A DNA stretch of 64,000 nt, taken from NCBI RefSeq assembly GCF_900103955.1, contig NZ_FNIL01000008.1, positions 62,001 through 126,000 of the forward strand, in the 5' to 3' direction. The notes under the pieces were generated by a model. It was given only the letters and a program-made list of their open reading frames with translations, was not told where the DNA came from and searched no databases. A program made the position numbers and the translations under genes. Below, piece by piece: positions 39,723-58,014 of the stretch (position 1 is the stretch's first letter; each line of letters opens with the position of its first letter). This stretch comes from Alkalicoccus daliensis. GTDB taxonomy: Bacteria; Bacillota; Bacilli; Bacillales; Salisediminibacteriaceae.

Positions 39723-41036
39723 ATGAAAAAAACATTATTACTTTGCTTAGCACTCCTGTTACTTATGTCGTTTGTGACAACAGCATTCGCAGGACAGTCA
39801 GGAAACGGTAAAAAGGACCAGGCTTTTTCACTCGGAATTGATAATTTACTTGAAGAAGAAATTGATTTAATCAGAGGAAAACAAGTAGGTCTTGTTACTA
39901 ATCCTACGGGCGTTGATCAGGAGTTAACGAGTATTGTGGATATATTATTTGAGCATCCCGAAGTCGATTTAACTGCATTGTACGGGCCGGAACATGGGGT
40001 GCGGGGCGATGCACAGGCAGGAGATTATGTTGAATTTTATATTGATGAACGCACAGAACTGCCGGTTTACAGTTTATACGGTGCTACAAGGAAACCAACT
40101 GCAGAAATGCTGGAAGACATAGAAGTGCTGTTATTTGATATTCAGGATGTAGGCACACGTTTTTACACATACATTTATACAATGGCTTATGTAATGGAAG
40201 CAGCAGAAGAAAATGATATCCCGGTAGTTGTGCTCGACCGTCCAAATCCTATTGGTGGAGATAAGGTGGAGGGGCCGGTATTGGAGCCGGAGTTTGAATC
40301 TTTTGTAGGAATGTATCCAATTCCCCTTCGCCACGGGATGACAGTTGGAGAACTGGCACTGCTTTTTAATGAAGAATTTGATATTCAGGCGGATTTATCT
40401 GTAGTAGAAATGGACGGATGGGAGCGCTGGATGAACTATGACGATACGCCGCTGCACTGGGTACTCCAGTCTCCTAATATGCCAACTCTTGATACAGCCT
40501 ACGTGTATCCAGGTGCTGCGTTAATTGAAGGTACCAATCTTTCTGAAGGAAGAGGGACCACAAAGCCGTTTGAACTTGTTGGTGCCCCTTTCATTGATTC
40601 CACAGAATTAGCAGCGGCCATGAATGCGCTGAATCTGCAAGGTGTTACTTTCCGTGCTGCTTCTTTTACTCCTGCGTTTTCTAAACATGCAGGTCAGCTG
40701 AGCAACGGGGTGCAGATACACATTGACGACTACGAAGCATTCCAGCCGATAGAAACCGGAATTCATTTATTAGTCACCTTACAGGAGTTATACCCGGAGG
40801 ACTTTGAATTTCTAAGCAACAATTTCTTCGATAATCTGATCGGCAACGGTGATACGCGTCAGCAGATTCTAAGCGGCATGTCAGCAGAAGAAATTACCGA
40901 CTCCTGGCAGGATGGACTGGAAGATTTCCATGAAGTAAGAGAGGAATATCTACTTTATGAGGAGCATACAAAAGGCCGATCCCCCGGAAGTAAGGATCAT
41001 CCAGGAAGAGGAAATAACCCTCCTGGTAAAAATTAA
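39723..41036 (+). CDS. namZ: Exo-beta-N-acetylmuramidase NamZ (DUF1343)
   Basis: A 437-residue secreted protein of the DUF1343 family, shown in B. subtilis (NamZ, formerly YbbC) to release N-acetylmuramic acid from the non-reducing end of glycan chains. A signal peptide (about 23 residues, ending TTAFA) is followed by the catalytic fold: GKQVGLVTNPTGV, LTALYGPEHGVRG, LFDIQDVGTRFYTYIYTM, VLDRPNPIGG and SEGRGTTKPFE. The C terminus is a basic tail rich in Gly, Pro and Lys. It is followed by a NagZ-type glucosaminidase, the same pairing as in the B. subtilis peptidoglycan recycling operon. Start after GGGAGG. Confidence 0.9.
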   Translation: MKKTLLLCLALLLLMSFVTTAFAGQSGNGKKDQAFSLGIDNLLEEEIDLIRGKQVGLVTNPTGVDQELTSIVDILFEHPEVDLTALYGPEHGVRGDAQAGDYVEFYIDERTELPVYSLYGATRKPTAEMLEDIEVLLFDIQDVGTRFYTYIYTMAYVMEAAEENDIPVVVLDRPNPIGGDKVEGPVLEPEFESFVGMYPIPLRHGMTVGELALLFNEEFDIQADLSVVEMDGWERWMNYDDTPLHWVLQSPNMPTLDTAYVYPGAALIEGTNLSEGRGTTKPFELVGAPFIDSTELAAAMNALNLQGVTFRAASFTPAFSKHAGQLSNGVQIHIDDYEAFQPIETGIHLLVTLQELYPEDFEFLSNNFFDNLIGNGDTRQQILSGMSAEEITDSWQDGLEDFHEVREEYLLYEEHTKGRSPGSKDHPGRGNNPPGKN

Positions 41037-52788: not shown

Positions 52789-53224
52789 TTTAATATACTG
52801 CTGCATGCGCAGCTTTCTTAAAACAACACGCGGCTGTTTACACCATGAAAGATGAAATAAACATTGCGCTGTAACGTAAGAGAGAGCAGACAAAGAACCA
52901 GCAGCGTGCAAGAATTTATACTGGAGTCTTCATTGTTAGTGGAAACAATATCTTAAGTGAAGGACGGTACCGCTTCTTAATTAATGAAGTTTATATGTTC
53001 CAGATAGATTTTTAAATAATACGGACGTTGTATATCTCTGAAAATCCAATTGTACATAAAATATAAGAAAAAGATTTTTGGTAAAATTCAAAGCTGCTGC
53101 CCTGAAAAAAATAGTTATTAATCTTCTATATTCACCTTGTAAATTTCACTATAAAGTCTGATATGGCAGTATCTGAAAAGGATCATTTAGAGAAAAAGAG
53201 TAAATATTTATTCGAAAATAATAT
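52789..53224. other. AT-rich intergenic gap before the NlpC/P60 pair
   Basis: About 430 bases without a coding frame I can support. A small hairpin, CTGCTGCATGCGCAGC, lies at about 52800. The right part leads into the conserved upstream region of the NlpC/P60 gene. Confidence 0.35.
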
Positions 53225-53330
53225 ATTACAAGAATATTACAAGTGATTAGAGTTCTATTACATTCCAAAAAAGGGGTTTATTTTTATACCCGGTTTAGAC
53301 TAGTATTAAACCTGTTGAAAAAAACAAACA
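53225..53330 (+). promoter_or_regulatory. Conserved upstream region of NlpC/P60 gene 1 with WalR-like half-sites
   Basis: ATTACA occurs at 53225, 53236 and 53257; the first two, 11 bases apart, read on the minus strand as TGTAAT-N5-TGTAAT, the WalR consensus. The region then has GGGGTTTATTTTTATACCC and TAGTATTAAAC. The same order of elements occurs before the second NlpC/P60 gene (54271-54356). Confidence 0.5.
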
Positions 53331-53406
53331 AAAAAATTCACTTATTGATTATATAGAAATTATATTTTTAACAAACAAAAACAAAAATGATGGGGAGAGA
53401 ATATAC

Positions 53407-54105
53407 ATGAAAAAATTTATGATGAGTATCGCACTTGCAGGGGCATTATTAGTCGCACCAACAGTTTCGGAAGCAACAGTAAAAATGGGAGACCGCGGAA
53501 GCGACGTAACAGAACTTCAGCAGACATTAGCTTCAAAAGGACATAACAGTTCTTCCAATGTAGACGGCGTATTCGGTCCAATGACTTTAAACGCAGTACA
53601 GTCTTACCAGCGCTCTACTGGTATTTCCAGCCCGGCTGGTAACTTCTTCGGAGTTGCAGGACCGGCAACATTAGGTTCTCTTGGACTGTCTTCTTCTGGT
53701 TCAACAAGCAGCACAAGTACTTCTACTGCAGTAGCAGGAACAAGCACAACAAGCAGCAACAGTGGTGTTATTTCTACAGCAAAAAGCCTGACAGGCAGCC
53801 CATATGTATGGGGAGGAACTTCTCCACGCGGATTTGACTGCAGCGGCTTCATTCAGTATGCATTTGCACAAAACGGCAAGAGTATCCCACGTACAGTTTC
53901 TCAAATGTGGAGTGCAGGATCCAGCGTATCCAGCCCGTCTACAGGCGACCTGGTGTTCTTTGAAACTCGTTCCGGCCCATCCCACGCGGGAATCTACATC
54001 GGCGGCAACCAGTTCATTCACTCCGGTTCTTCTACAGGGGTAACAATCTCCAGCCTGAGCAACCCTTACTGGAGCAAAACTTACATGGGTGCAAAGCGTC
54101 TGTAA
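53407..54105 (+). CDS. NlpC/P60 endopeptidase with peptidoglycan-binding domain, copy 1
   Basis: A 232-residue secreted wall hydrolase. A signal peptide (to about residue 23, TVSEA) is followed by a PG_binding_1 domain (MGDRGSDVTELQQTLASKG ... GVFGPMTLNAVQSYQR, about 26-95), a Ser/Thr linker and an NlpC/P60 domain. Its catalytic triad is Cys145 in RGFDCSGFIQ, His193 in PSHAGIYIG and His205 in FIHSGSS. Such D,L-endopeptidases cut the stem peptide (gamma-D-Glu to diamino acid). The next gene is a tandem copy; the last ~310 bases of the two are almost identical. Candidate WalR boxes upstream suit a growth-linked autolysin. Confidence 0.93.
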   Translation: MKKFMMSIALAGALLVAPTVSEATVKMGDRGSDVTELQQTLASKGHNSSSNVDGVFGPMTLNAVQSYQRSTGISSPAGNFFGVAGPATLGSLGLSSSGSTSSTSTSTAVAGTSTTSSNSGVISTAKSLTGSPYVWGGTSPRGFDCSGFIQYAFAQNGKSIPRTVSQMWSAGSSVSSPSTGDLVFFETRSGPSHAGIYIGGNQFIHSGSSTGVTISSLSNPYWSKTYMGAKRL

Positions 54106-54117
54106 TATTTCAGTAAT

Positions 54118-54164
54118 ATAAACAGGCACTTCGAGCGAATTGAAGTGCCTGTTTTTTATTTGGA
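54118..54164 (+). terminator. Terminator after NlpC/P60 gene 1
   Basis: Perfect 12-bp stem AACAGGCACTTC / GAAGTGCCTGTT with a nine-base loop and a T-run. Confidence 0.88.
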
Positions 54165-54270
54165 CAAAAAAGAGATGCAGGTAGAAAGACTAAAGGTTTT
54201 TAAGGGTTTTTGAGACTATCGATAGAGTAGTTTTTGTCGTTTTTTGGCACATTACCTTAATTGTCTGTAT

Positions 54271-54356
54271 ATTACGGGAGTTTTACAGTGCGTTAGAGTT
54301 ATATTACAGTTTCGAAAAAGGGTATCTTTTTATACCCGCTCTCCATTAGTATTAAA
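54271..54356 (+). promoter_or_regulatory. Conserved upstream region of NlpC/P60 gene 2
   Basis: Half-sites ATTACG (54271), TTTACA (54282) and ATTACA (54303) match the spacing of those before copy 1. They are followed by a perfect hairpin GGGTAT CTTTTT ATACCC (54320-54337) and TTAGTATTAAAC. Confidence 0.5.
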
Positions 54357-54431
54357 CATGCAAGCAAGAGAAAAAACAAAAAATATAAAACTTTAAATAA
54401 AAACATACAAAGAAAAGGGAGAGATTACATA

Positions 54432-55154
54432 ATGAAAAAGCTAGTCATGAGTATCGCACTTGCAGGGGCATTATTAGTCGCACCAACAGTTTCGGAAGCA
54501 ACAGTAAAAATGGGAGACCGCGGCGCAAGCGTAACAGAGCTGCAGCAGACATTAGCTTCTAAAGGACACAACAGCGCTTCCAACGTCGACGGCGTATTCG
54601 GACCAATGACACTTCGTTCGGTTCAGTCGTACCAGCGTTCCACTGGTATTTCCAGCCCGGCTGGTAACTTCTTCGGTGTCGCAGGACCGGCAACATTAAG
54701 CTCTCTGGGACTATCTTCTTCTGGTTCTACAAGCACGGCTTCTTCCAGCACAAGCACGAGCAGCTCGAACTCAACTGCAGTAGCAGGGACAAGCACAACA
54801 AGCAGCAACAGCGGTGTTATTTCCACTGCAAGAAGCCTTGTTGGCAGCCCATATGTATGGGGAGGAACTTCTCCACGCGGATTTGACTGCAGCGGCTTCA
54901 TTCAGTATGCATTTGCACAAAACGGCAAGAGTATCCCACGTACAGTTTCTCAAATGTGGAGTGCAGGATCCAGCGTATCCAGCCCGTCTACAGGCGACCT
55001 GGTGTTCTTTGAAACTCGTTCCGGCCCATCCCACGCGGGAATCTACATCGGCGGCAACCAGTTCATTCACTCCGGTTCTTCTACAGGCGTAACAATCTCC
55101 AGCCTGAGCAACCCTTACTGGAGCAAAACTTACATGGGTGCAAAGCGTCTGTAA
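54432..55154 (+). CDS. NlpC/P60 endopeptidase with peptidoglycan-binding domain, copy 2
   Basis: A 240-residue tandem paralogue of the gene at 53407, with the same signal peptide, PG_binding_1 domain and NlpC/P60 domain (Cys153, His201, His213). It differs mainly in a Ser/Thr linker that is eight residues longer (STASSSTSTSSSNSTAVAG) and in silent or mild changes in the binding domain. From about 54843 to the stop the DNA is the same as copy 1 except for one base seen by eye, so the catalytic half has been homogenised recently. It has its own promoter region and terminator, so the pair need not be co-transcribed. Confidence 0.93.
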   Translation: MKKLVMSIALAGALLVAPTVSEATVKMGDRGASVTELQQTLASKGHNSASNVDGVFGPMTLRSVQSYQRSTGISSPAGNFFGVAGPATLSSLGLSSSGSTSTASSSTSTSSSNSTAVAGTSTTSSNSGVISTARSLVGSPYVWGGTSPRGFDCSGFIQYAFAQNGKSIPRTVSQMWSAGSSVSSPSTGDLVFFETRSGPSHAGIYIGGNQFIHSGSSTGVTISSLSNPYWSKTYMGAKRL

Positions 55155-55169
55155 GTTCATATACGAAAT

Positions 55170-55208
55170 AGAAAGACATTCCGGAACCGCCGGAATGTCT
55201 TTTTTTGT
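55170..55208 (+). terminator. Terminator after NlpC/P60 gene 2
   Basis: Perfect stem AAGACATTCCGG / CCGGAATGTCTT with a five-base loop, then TTTTTT. Confidence 0.88.
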
Positions 55209-55235
55209 GCGGAATAAGTGGAGTGGGGGAGGGCG

Positions 55236-55910
55236 CGCTATTTTACTGTCGCGCCCGCTATTTTACTCCGAATCGCTTATATTAACATCCAAACCCGCTA
55301 TACTGACATAAAAACTCGCTATACTTTAATGAAACCCGCCTATATTTAACTCCGAACCGGCTATGTTGAAATGAAATTCTCCGCTGCTGAACTCTCCTCT
55401 CGGATGTACTGCAACACCAACCCGAAAAGCATGTTACCTGCTTCATTTAAAACCGCTCCCTATAGAAAATGCAAAGTAGAACAGGTAACTAAGGTTCGTG
55501 CCTGCTTATTTTACTGTCACGAGGCCTATTTTACTCCAAAACGCTTATACTGACATCCGAACCCGCTATACTTTAATGAAACCCGCCCATATTTTACTCC
55601 GAACCGGCTATGCTGAAATGAAAGGTCCCGCTGTTGAACTTTCCCCCGGATGTACTGCAACACCAACCCGAAGAGCATATTACCTGCTTCAACTAAACCC
55701 ATTCCCATAGGAAGTGCAAAATAGAGCAGGTAACTAAGGTTCGTGCCCGCTTATTTTACTGTCGCGCCGGCTATTTTACTCCGAATCGCTTATACTGACA
55801 TCCGAACCGGCTATACTAACATAAAAACCCGCTATACTTTAATGAAACCCGGCTATATTTTACTCCGAACCGGCTATACTATCATGAAAACCTTTTATAT
55901 TAACGCACTA
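55236..55910. repeat. Composite array: three blocks of degenerate ~20-bp repeats with two long spacers
   Basis: Units of 17-22 bases begin CGCTAT, GGCTAT or CGCTTAT and continue with one of a few endings: TTTACTCCGAA, TGACATCCGAA, CTTTAATGAAA, TAACATAAAA. Block 1 (55236-55380) has seven, block 2 (55503-55626) six, block 3 (55748-55910) eight. The two spacers (55381-55502, 55627-55747) are ~121-bp near-copies of each other, so the whole is a duplicated ~250-bp module. Each spacer contains an inverted pair (TTACCTGCT with AGCAGGTAA). There is no coding frame and no cas gene. Confidence 0.8.
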
Positions 55911-55956
55911 ACCGTCTAGGCTGGACTTTATATTAACTTTTTGCTGATTTCACAAA

Positions 55957-55993
55957 CAAAAAAGAAGCCTGCAATTTTTGAGGCTTCTTTTAC
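55957..55993 (-). terminator. Terminator of the TetR regulator gene
   Basis: Stem AAAGAAGCCT / AGGCTTCTTT (55961-55970, 55981-55990) with a ten-base loop; on the minus strand it follows the regulator stop and ends in a T-run. Confidence 0.75.
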
Positions 55994-56005
55994 AGTATCT
56001 TTATA

Positions 56006-56593
56006 TCAGGACTCTTCCAGCCTGACTTTGGAACTGCCGGGATGAAAATTTAAAATTTTAATCAATTGCTCATTCATATATTCAGGGGTAAACTTAAAGC
56101 CTTCGGAAACCCAGGAAACAATCAGTCCCGTAATCGCATGAGCATGGTAGCTTGCGTAGAGCTCTGCATTAATATCTTGTGGAGAATCTTCCATAAGTTC
56201 ATGAAGCGTCAGCTGCTTGATCAGCGAACAGATCCTCTCCTGAAAGCCTGTAAAAATAGCAGTATCGAGGATCACTGAATAAAAATCTGCATAGGAGTAA
56301 ATATGTTCAAATATTTTAATGGAAGTGGCACTCAGTTCACTAAAAATAATTCGGTCCGACCCAATGTAAGGCTCTCTGTAAGCACGGATCAAATCTTCCA
56401 TTACGTCTTCCGTCAGCTTCTGGAATAAATCGTCAATGGAAGAATAATGCTGATAAAAAGTACTGCGGTTCACGTCTGCATGAGCTGCAAGAGAGGTGAT
56501 GGTGATTTGTTTTATCGATCGCTGCTTCATCAGTGCAATTAAGCTTTCTTTTAAAGCTTTTTTTGATTTGAGTATACGTCGGTCTTCACTCAT
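56006..56593 (-). CDS. TetR-family transcriptional regulator
   Basis: A 195-residue repressor. The N-terminal helix-turn-helix is IKQITITSLAAHADVNRSTFYQHYSSIDDLF; the C-terminal half (helices with YADFYSVILDTAIFTGFQERI) matches the TetR_C_8 ligand domain type often found with dihydroxyacetone kinase-like activators and in many Bacilli. I use the ATG at 56593, seven bases after GGGAGGCG; a TTG seven codons earlier has no site. Its target is unknown. It may govern the oxidoreductase cluster 1.5-8 kb away, but the DUF2294 gene and a long gap lie between. Confidence 0.85.
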   Translation of the reverse strand: MSEDRRILKSKKALKESLIALMKQRSIKQITITSLAAHADVNRSTFYQHYSSIDDLFQKLTEDVMEDLIRAYREPYIGSDRIIFSELSATSIKIFEHIYSYADFYSVILDTAIFTGFQERICSLIKQLTLHELMEDSPQDINAELYASYHAHAITGLIVSWVSEGFKFTPEYMNEQLIKILNFHPGSSKVRLEES

Positions 56594-56823
56594 AATAACT
56601 CGCCTCCCATACAATCCCCACTGTTCTCTCTTTAATAAAGTACAATTCTATATTAATTATAAGCGAAAGGCAGCAGAAAAATACAATTAGATACACTTTT
56701 ACGGCTAACTGCTGGGAAATATTCTGAGATGTGGGAAACATGAAGGCAGTTTTTTAATGAACGTTGGATAAAAATGCAATCTCTCCTATATGAAGCTGTT
56801 TCTGAGTAAACAATCCCATTTGA

Positions 56824-57555
56824 TTATTTCAGCGGTTCAGCAGGGTCGCTGACAATCACAATCGTACTTTTGTCATCTCTGAAATTCCAGTCAACGAAAA
56901 TCTCCTGGATGTTCACTTTTAAAATATTCCTTATTAAATCTTTCTTATTAAATAATTTCTTTTCTACATCCCGCTTCGCTACTTTCAGTGAGCGGCCTTC
57001 TCCCATTTCAATCAGCTTTTTCTCAATATCGACAAGAATTCCTTCCCGGACCATCAGAATCGTTCTTCTGTCAACTTTTATAGAAGTGATGCGGTCCGGG
57101 GTTCGTTCTGCAATCGCACTCAACTGTGAAAATTTTTCTTCCAGCTCTTTTTTATAAGGGAAATCGTGTTCCATATCTTCTTCTTCTTTTTTTGCATTTT
57201 TGTATGCCTGGGGTTTTAAGCCGACCAGCACACCGGAACGATTATTGATGTTCCAGTCAAAAAAGAATTCATTAAATGTATTGCCAGTAATTTTTTCTGC
57301 TTCGAACTGAATTTTTTGGGTGATCTGTGACATCATACTTTCCCGGAGAGCGTGGAGGGCATCGGGACCTTGCTCTTCGAGAATAATTTTCTCCATAGGG
57401 GATAAAAATCCTTTTAATAAGATGATGACGTAGCTGTCCCCAAGCTTCGTAAATGCAGATTCCGGCCCTTTACCAAAAGAATCCCTCAGCATGCGCCCGA
57501 CACAGTTTGCCATTGTTTTCTGCTGTGCTTTGTGTTCTTCCTCCGTAAGTGCCAT
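56824..57555 (-). CDS. DUF2294 protein with two tandem domains
   Basis: A 243-residue cytoplasmic protein with a duplicated DUF2294 unit. The first repeat has LRDSFGKGPESAFTKLGDSYVIILLKGFLSPMEKIIL and ends FDWNINNRSGVLVGL; the second has ERTPDRITSIKVDRRTILMVREGILVDIEKKLIE and ends VDWNFRDDKSTIVIVS. The matching DWN..... ends show the duplication. The family occurs in Bacilli and cyanobacteria and has no proven function; a link to stress or ion homeostasis has been proposed only from context. GGAAAGGAG precedes the ATG. Monocistronic. Confidence 0.82.
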   Translation of the reverse strand: MALTEEEHKAQQKTMANCVGRMLRDSFGKGPESAFTKLGDSYVIILLKGFLSPMEKIILEEQGPDALHALRESMMSQITQKIQFEAEKITGNTFNEFFFDWNINNRSGVLVGLKPQAYKNAKKEEEDMEHDFPYKKELEEKFSQLSAIAERTPDRITSIKVDRRTILMVREGILVDIEKKLIEMGEGRSLKVAKRDVEKKLFNKKDLIRNILKVNIQEIFVDWNFRDDKSTIVIVSDPAEPLK

Positions 57556-58014
57556 AAACTTTACTCCTTTCCGATCTGTAAGAGACGTTATAAGTTATTT
57601 TCCACTGATTAAGATTAATAAAACAAATCTTTTCATTGCAATAAAAATATTTCCCGCAGAGTGCCTCATGTGAATCCGAGGCGAGAAGGATAAAGGAAGC
57701 TGCGAACTGTATTTATCAGTGGAAAGCAAGCCTCCAAAAAAGCATTTGCAGGAAGTATAACAGCAAACAGGACTTCTATGGGAAAACTTACGAAATTGAT
57801 TTGATAAAGTACTTTCCTGTAAATAATAAATGGATTAAAAAAGGAAATCTCCTCCGCAGAGGGGTTACAATCTTTTGAACTAAACAACAATTGTACATCA
57901 GAGTGTGGATTTTCCAACATGAAGGAGATTATTGGTGATTGATACTTATATAAGGGTGAAATAAACTTAAGTTATGTAAGCGATTTCAAATAATGGACCA
58001 GGGGAGTGGATGTC
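57556..58014. other. Divergent intergenic region, no structure recognised
   Basis: About 460 bases holding the promoters of the DUF2294 gene (left) and the SDR gene (right). A minus-strand frame of 84 codons (57666-57920) has no ribosome binding site and is not called. Confidence 0.35.

What the first reader, a model, noticed from the sequence alone, without database searches (positions are those of the whole stretch)
55236..55910. Composite repeat array: ~20-bp units in three blocks separated by duplicated 121-bp spacers
Each block is a string of units sharing the head CGCTAT/GGCTAT but with a small vocabulary of tails that recur in nearly the same order in each block. Two near-identical spacers with an inverted pair sit between blocks, so a ~250-bp module has been copied. 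It is not CRISPR: the constant part is only about six bases, the variable parts repeat, and no cas genes are near. The word-like order, kept across blocks, hints at selection or recent copying. I know no described element with this layout.
Basis: seen in the sequence. Interest (0 to 1): 0.72.

Follow-up and report, generated by a model that had tools for sequence, protein, structure and literature searches.

The report
Dispersed 21-base intergenic repeat arrays
The array is one of about twenty copies of a non-coding repeat family scattered between genes of this bacterium; it behaves like the little-understood STAR repeats of staphylococci, and distant relatives carry arrays of the same build with different words, which suggests an undescribed wider class.

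Summary
In detail: three blocks of ~21-bp units joined by two ~124-bp spacers (245-bp module, 87% matches). It is not unique: related arrays lie at about 20 intergenic places on 12 contigs of this genome. Modules are 93% identical within and 71% between loci. Nearly all block starts carry the same opening units, U1-U2. A paralogous copy shows a whole-unit 21-bp indel and a recombination junction inside block 3. No coding frame; no conserved RNA structure. Best reading: a STAR-like interspersed repeat family growing by local duplication and recombination between loci. BLAST and sequence models found this family in no other genome tested. Yet other genomes of the order carry dispersed 20-21-bp TATA-headed arrays with other unit bodies; in two genera these open with a constant TTGTCGAA leader, containing the published Spo0A-box core. 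Own U1 has TGTCG at nearly the same offset, but own arrays fail the leader pattern. New variant of a known kind; function unproven.

The parts
54432..55154 (+). NlpC/P60 + PG_binding_1 gene directly upstream; a paralog with its own array lies on contig C7
   Evidence: Pfam PF00877 E 3.9e-35, PF01471; paralog 97.0% identical
55172..55202 (+). terminator-like hairpin behind the NlpC/P60 gene, 35 bp before the array
   Evidence: 13-nt perfect inverted repeat followed by a T-run
55237..55379 (+). block 1: U1 (55237-55256), U2 (55257-55274), then ~21-bp units
   Evidence: R1 match 55233-55269
55380..55503 (+). spacer 1 (~124 bp), inverted arms 55433-55440 / 55482-55489
   Evidence: R1 match 55426-55537, 89.8 bits
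55504..55624 (+). block 2; lacks one 21-bp unit that its paralog at C7 has
55625..55748 (+). spacer 2 (~124 bp), arms 55679-55686 / 55727-55734
   Evidence: R1 match 55672-55782, 94.6 bits
55749..55905 (+). block 3: U1 (from 55749), U2 (55770-55787), then units; identity to the C7 paralog collapses after U2
55960..55991 (-). terminator-like hairpin beside the convergent TetR-type gene (56006-56614, -)
   Evidence: 11-nt perfect inverted repeat; Pfam TetR_N and TetR_C_8

Best explanation
A DNA-level, non-coding, interspersed intergenic direct-repeat family that works like STAR elements. SHOWN: about 20 arrays in one genome; a nearly fixed grammar (spacer - U1 - U2 - variable ~21-bp units); modules alike within loci and different between loci; one whole-unit indel between paralogs; one junction inside an array beyond which two paralogous loci differ. 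INFERRED: arrays grow and shrink by replication slippage and unequal recombination. Arrays at different loci exchange material by homologous recombination through shared units. The unit skeleton and the U1-U2 start are kept either by this homogenisation or by weak selection. No host function is needed to explain what is seen; the arrays also act as landing and rearrangement sites.
For: 38 BLAST matches and 54 model matches at E<=1, 29 below 1e-12, in the own genome. Within-locus 0.93 vs between-locus 0.71 identity over 10 and 290 pairs of the 25 cores. C5 vs C7 paralogs: CDS 97.0%, 3' UTR 98.8%, block 1 95.5%, spacer 1 95.6%, block 2 90.1% plus one 21-bp gap, spacer 2 97.8%, U1-U2 of block 3 95.1%, then 77.6% and dissimilar flanks. 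Three changes within one unit turn one vocabulary word into another. Stops in all six frames, 6 to 18 each. Eight of 56 contig ends lie in or next to arrays, and two kinds of IS-like end interrupt arrays. Orthologous arrays of G009 and G019 in another genus also differ by whole units.
Against: The unit skeleton is far better conserved (six columns of 1.5-2 bits) than the spacer between loci (65%). U1-U2 recurs at nearly all block starts. Arrays of the same phase recur in other genera. The downstream ORF opposes the array in 12 of 16 cases, a tendency without explanation. All hint at function. The array is not much freer to change than its neighbour: divergence 2-10% per segment up to U2 of block 3, against 3% in the CDS.
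Confidence: 0.55

Rival explanations
1. Phased protein-binding platform: units spaced two helical turns apart (20-21 bp) present the TAT-containing head on one face of the DNA to a dedicated factor, opened by a leader or U1 box (TGTCG, like a Spo0A box); a nucleoid-organising or regulatory satellite whose word co-evolves with its binder.
For: Two-turn phase and TATA head in several genera. Constant TTGTCGAA leader before the units in 9 of 397 genomes with 3-14 matches each and no reversed-control match in those 9, and in 4 of 35 genomes of the own family. The Spo0A box is TGTCGAA (PMC5295017, passages). In 11 pairs of orthologous loci the leader is 96% identical, near flank 73%, array 76% (about 11 of the 21 leader positions were fixed by the search pattern).
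Against: Own arrays do not match the leader pattern (0 hits); only TGTCG at 6 bases before the head is shared (6 in g53, 7 in g3). Arrays printed of G117/G147 and G234 have no such leader. Own arrays are curved against dinucleotide shuffles but in 4 of 5 tests not against permuted units. Loci are gained or lost: none in G023 at one place where G009 has an array. No binder known.
Confidence: 0.2
2. Non-autonomous mobile element (MITE/REP-like) moved by a transposase, with a fixed 5' end (U1) and a variable 3' end.
For: Dispersed about 20 times; 5' ends mostly at U1-U2 or the spacer, 3' ends variable; inverted arms in the spacer.
Against: Arms not kept as a pair (70.0% of cells paired, 70.4% after shuffling); no shared terminal inverted repeats or target duplications seen (not searched systematically); no match in phages or plasmids.
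Confidence: 0.13
3. RNA-level element: 3' UTR, rut-like or antisense region acting after transcription.
For: Window array lies between terminator-like hairpins of two convergent genes; C exceeds G on the + strand (187 vs 103). One of ten spacers folded alone, spacer 2 of the window, is more stable than 195 of 200 shuffles (z -2.2).
Against: The whole array folds less stably than shuffles (z +1.9 and +1.1, 20 shuffles each); the other nine spacers have z -1.7 to +0.8; no consensus structure; no Rfam match at E<=1 in 53000-58000; array orientation relative to genes is mixed, two arrays lying between divergent ORFs.
Confidence: 0.06
4. CRISPR array, plasmid iterons, coding repeat, or assembly artefact.
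For: Tandem ~20-bp units with short constant parts.
Against: Both heads and tails vary and recur; stops in all frames; no plasmid match; about 20 places on 12 contigs.
Confidence: 0.03

Closest known systems
STAR elements (Staphylococcus aureus repeat; PMC3532100, abstract and passages seen)
   Same: Interspersed intergenic direct repeats; short constant motif with recurring spacers; spacers alike within a locus and distinct between loci; locations differ between species; function and spread unknown.
   Different: STAR is a 14-bp GC-rich motif with spacers of at least 40 bp; here the unit is ~21 bp, TAT-headed, phased near two helical turns, with a U1-U2 start and a longer spacer. The STAR authors saw no frequent exchange between loci; here one junction between loci is visible. 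No STAR motif in the array.
BOX elements of Streptococcus pneumoniae (PMC3049150, abstract seen; boxA/B/C modules recalled)
   Same: Small interspersed repeats that proliferated mainly in one species and are nearly absent from most relatives; thought parasitic by those authors.
   Different: BOX elements are described with extensive secondary structure; no conserved structure here.
TTGTCGAA-led 20-21-bp TATA arrays of genera g3 and g53
   Same: Dispersed arrays, same phase, TATA heads, constant opening, bodies that differ between species.
   Different: Different unit body; full leader absent in own arrays; no 124-bp spacer seen in the loci printed.
MIRU/VNTR minisatellites (recalled)
   Same: Tandem units at scattered intergenic loci with locus-specific copy number.
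   Different: Unit length and composite spacer; recalled, not compared here.

Membership tests
STAR element | 14-bp motif T(G/A/T)TGTTG(G/T)GGCCC(C/A) | tested here: not met
   Only match with up to 2 mismatches in the window is at 40575-40588, outside the array; 3 expected by chance
STAR element | interspersed, intergenic, several copies per genome | tested here: met
   about 20 places; flanking ORFs are mechanical calls
STAR element | recurring spacers, homogeneous within and distinct between loci | tested here: met
   spacer identity 0.93 within (10 pairs), 0.65 between loci (290 pairs)
STAR element | copy-number variation between strains | not testable with these tools
   one genome per species; only a paralog comparison (one 21-bp indel)
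CRISPR | near-identical repeats separated by unique spacers of constant length | tested here: not met
   heads and tails both vary and recur
CRISPR | cas genes nearby | not tested
   only 4 flanking proteins scanned: NlpC/P60 twice, TetR, MpsC
BOX / structured RNA repeat | conserved stem-loop | tested here: not met
   0 consensus pairs; arm pairing equals shuffled; single spacer 2 of the window folds well
MITE/REP | terminal inverted repeats and target-site duplication | tested here: inconclusive
   internal inverted arms only, 4-8 of 8 pairs kept in 25 copies; duplications not searched
TTGTCGAA-led array class | leader TTGTCGA + 4-6 nt + YTATA + phased YTATA | tested here: not met
   0 matches in G000; weaker TGTCG N6 YTAT: 23 TGTCG N5-7 YTAT sites in 146,502 bp of own sequence, 20 of them U1 of arrays
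TTGTCGAA-led array class | dispersed 21-bp YTATA-phased arrays | tested here: met
   50 matches in own genome, 3 for the reversed control
plasmid iterons | beside a replication gene on a plasmid or phage | tested here: not met
   no distant BLAST match in 72,556 plasmids and 50,697 phages; many loci on large contigs

The most novel reading that the evidence does not exclude
The window array belongs to an undescribed class of bacterial 'satellites': dispersed intergenic arrays of 20-21-bp (two-turn) TATA-headed units behind a constant opening box (TTGTCGAA, Spo0A-box-like), in which the unit body is replaced genome-wide from species to species. That is concerted evolution in trans, best explained by a dedicated, co-evolving array-binding factor, possibly tied to sporulation or nucleoid layout.
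Probability: 0.13. Interest if true: 0.85.

Novelty: new variant of a known kind. Interest (0 to 1): 0.55.

Why it matters
STAR-like repeats have no known function or spreading mechanism. This genome shows several steps in one place: a whole-unit indel, module doubling, and a junction between loci. The comparison adds something that the paper searches did not turn up (open-licence library only): arrays in different genera share the helical phase, the TATA head and, in two genera, the same opening box, while the unit body differs between species of one genus. That makes it testable whether such repeats are passive or bound by a factor.

Tried and rejected
CRISPR, coding repeat, iterons, RNA element and assembly error: see rivals. 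DNA curvature: own arrays curve more than dinucleotide shuffles in 7 of 7 tests (z 2.8-8.0; two of the seven overlap), but more than arrays with permuted unit columns in only 1 of 5 at the 5% level; 6 leader-class arrays have z -1.3 to 1.9, 3 arrays of G117/G147 0.2 to 3.0, and one unrelated flank 1.8. So curvature is mostly a by-product of the period; the wedge values were recalled. Hairpin in the spacer: not supported as a family trait, though window spacer 2 alone folds well. Genome-wide exact pattern in genome contigs: 5 hits, none with an array in the context printed; the own genome may be left out there. The first pattern list was mis-phased and gave zeros; corrected. Of 22 genomes with a leader match, 13 have a single one; those printed (L191, L192, L202, L204) show no long array. 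The single R1 match in G019 shows no array. Arrays of G077, G115, G246 and G309 overlap long ORFs and were set aside; G131 overlaps ORFs and Ns; G009 (L133/L110), G234 (L134) and G155 overlap short mechanical ORFs. My first thought that congeners have no arrays was wrong: searches show short 21-bp arrays with other bodies in G001, G005 and G007. In one search four of the 19 stretches (L145, L147, L148, L156) gave no row. The tblastx line printed nothing and was not used. The organism could not be named; 'Spo0A box' rests on sequence alone.

Full report
OBSERVATION. The window holds three blocks of ~21-bp units at 55237-55379, 55504-55624 and 55749-~55905, separated by two spacers of about 124 bp. 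TRF: period 245, 2.1 copies, 87% matches. Heads phased at 20/21 bp: 13 in the array, at most 1 in 500 shuffles, none elsewhere in the window. The array sits between a terminator-like hairpin behind an NlpC/P60 gene and one beside a convergent TetR-type gene.

A FAMILY, NOT A SINGLETON. BLAST of the 675 bp finds 38 matches in the own genome. A sequence-only model (R1) of 25 spacer-U1-U2 cores (A1) finds 54 matches at E<=1, 29 of them below 1e-12. With they mark 20-24 places on 12 contigs (C4, C5, C6, C7, C12, C14, C16, C17, C19, C23, C24, C27); some, at contig ends beside IS-like ends, may be parts of one interrupted array. The grammar is nearly constant: [spacer AAAGCATATTACCTTCTTCATTT...AAAATAGAGCAGCTAATTTACGTTCGTGCCC][U1 GCTTATTTTACTGTCGCGCCC][U2 GCTATTTTACTCCGAATC][variable units]. 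Of the 45 R1 matches with E<=0.0072, 41 run from the U1 into the U2 part of the model, with or without a spacer before them. The four left out are two cut by contig ends, one half spacer and one on the opposite strand of a spacer. Two of the 41 (contig C6, L011) have a U2-like unit in place of U1; not every one of the 41 was read by eye.

UNIT. Among 79 middle units chosen by the heads 21 bp to either side, T2 A3 T4, T7, T12 and A16 are nearly fixed, while columns 8-11, 13-15 and 17-19 mix a few letters. Tails recur, which I take to mean that a small set of words was amplified.

HOW IT CHANGES. Modules of one locus are 93% identical (10 pairs), of different loci 71% (290 pairs); for the spacer alone 93% and 65%. 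The NlpC/P60 gene and its array exist twice. From gene to U2 of block 3 the two copies are 90-99% identical segment by segment, with one gap of exactly 21 bp. After U2 of block 3 identity falls to 78% and the flank is dissimilar. So the junction between the two loci lies inside the repeat; that recombination made it is my inference. In block 1 three changes within one unit convert a TATTAACAT unit into a TACTGACAT unit, both recurring words. Contigs C4, C6, C7, C17, C19 and C23 end in or next to arrays (8 of 56 ends), and two kinds of IS-like end lie inside arrays.

WHAT IT IS NOT. No open frame over the array (6-18 stops in each of six frames). No conserved RNA structure: whole array z +1.9 and +1.1, no consensus pairs, no Rfam match at E<=1. 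Against this, one of ten spacers folded alone, window spacer 2, has z -2.2. The inverted arms pair 8 and 7 of 8 in the two window copies and 4-7 of 8 in the other 23, no better than shuffled. Orientation to neighbours is mixed: upstream ORF on the same strand in 9 of 17, downstream ORF opposed in 12 of 16 (mechanical ORFs, 19 rows, one locus split in two). No match in plasmids or phages. STAR motif absent from the array.

RELATIVES. BLAST in 60 genomes including the own: only the own matches (at most 9 candidates scored per genome). R1 in 35 genomes of the family including the own: the own plus one weak match in G019 without an array. R2 (three units) in 348 genomes of the order including the own: the own plus one weak match in G234 (15 candidates per genome, strict filters), which proved to be a different 21-bp array, CCTATAAACCGCTCCGAACCT. 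This led to a search for phase alone: CTATA three times at 21 bp is found in 25 of 397 genomes (the reversed control is more abundant than the pattern in several genomes, e.g. G104). Of the loci printed, several are arrays with other bodies and no ORF of 90 aa over them, and four genomes have it in long ORFs. G117 and G147 carry many 20-bp arrays CGCTATAAAAA+variable tail; the 12 printed stand behind an inverted repeat, imperfect in some, and mostly behind a terminator-like stretch, judged by eye. At one array place of the own genome the neighbouring gene was found in G003, G001 and G007 without an array beside it.

A SHARED OPENING. Several arrays begin with TTTGTCGAA. The pattern TTGTCGA-N4-6-YTATA-N15/16-YTATA is found in 22 of 397 genomes of the order. 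Nine have 3-14 matches each and no control match: seven of 11 g53 genomes and two of three g3 genomes in that sample. The other 13 have one match each, and reversed-control matches (at most two a genome) occur in many other genomes, one in the own. In the own family it is found in 4 of 35 genomes, all g3 (4 of 8), with no control match in those four; one of the four matches of G028 is not an array (L215). Within g3 three bodies follow the same opening: TATACGGTAGAGT (G009, G019), TATAATGCACTT (G028) and TATACGANNNAA (G023). TGTCGAA is the published Spo0A-box consensus (PMC5295017, passages). The own genome does NOT match this pattern. Its U1 has TGTCG six bases before the next head (six in g53, seven in g3): 20 of 23 TGTCG-N5-7-YTAT sites in 146,502 bp of own sequence are U1 copies. 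I take this as suggestive only. Relaxed phase search in the family: 50 matches in the own genome (control 3), 45-90 in G009, G019, G023 and G028 (control 0-9; the G028 unit reads on both strands), 0-3 elsewhere (control up to 33, in G025). Congeners G001, G005 and G007 have one or two matches; those printed are short 21-bp arrays with yet other bodies. So the phase, not the family, is present in the genus.

ORTHOLOGY. Across 11 pairs of orthologous-looking loci of g53 the leader is 96% identical, the near flank 73% and the array 76%; about 11 of 21 leader positions were fixed by the search pattern. G009 and G019 (91% identical over 5.4 kb) share both arrays of a region, with different unit numbers; in one, G019 has a changed leader. 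G023 has no array at one of these places.

VERDICT. Best supported: a STAR-like interspersed direct-repeat family, passively growing and exchanging. STAR features and the lack of an assigned function are from PMC3532100 (abstract and passages); BOX from the abstract of PMC3049150. Rival with the highest stake: phased binding arrays. Paper searches for the sequences gave no paper describing them (one unrelated hit); topic searches showed no family of this build in their listings. The library holds open-licence papers only.

Noticed in passing
window 53407-54105 and 54432-55154: Tandem NlpC/P60 paralogs; the array follows only the second. A further NlpC-like pair with an array lies on contig C7.
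   Followed up: partly
L141 (C4), L143 (C6 end), L152 (C17): Two kinds of IS-like end (GAGTTAGTCTTAAAAGTGGACAG and GGACTTTAGTCAAGAAAGTGGACAC) interrupt arrays; contigs break there.
   Followed up: partly
L123, L130 (G117, G147): Behind the CGCTATAAAAA arrays lies another short tandem repeat, TTTATTGGCGATTTTCA-like.
   Followed up: no
G104, G167, G379, G108 (control columns): The reversed control pattern (ATATC at 21-bp phase) is very frequent in some genomes (up to 90 matches a strand): other 21-bp arrays or coding repeats.
   Followed up: no
L139 (G399 C3:3620-3752): Near-perfect 21-bp array ACTATAACATTTTCGGTCCCA close to what looks like a gene start.
   Followed up: no
L223 (G009 C10): Two TTGTCGAA-led arrays 1.8 kb apart keep the same order of unit types and similar tails, the same 'word order' sign as in the window.
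   Followed up: no
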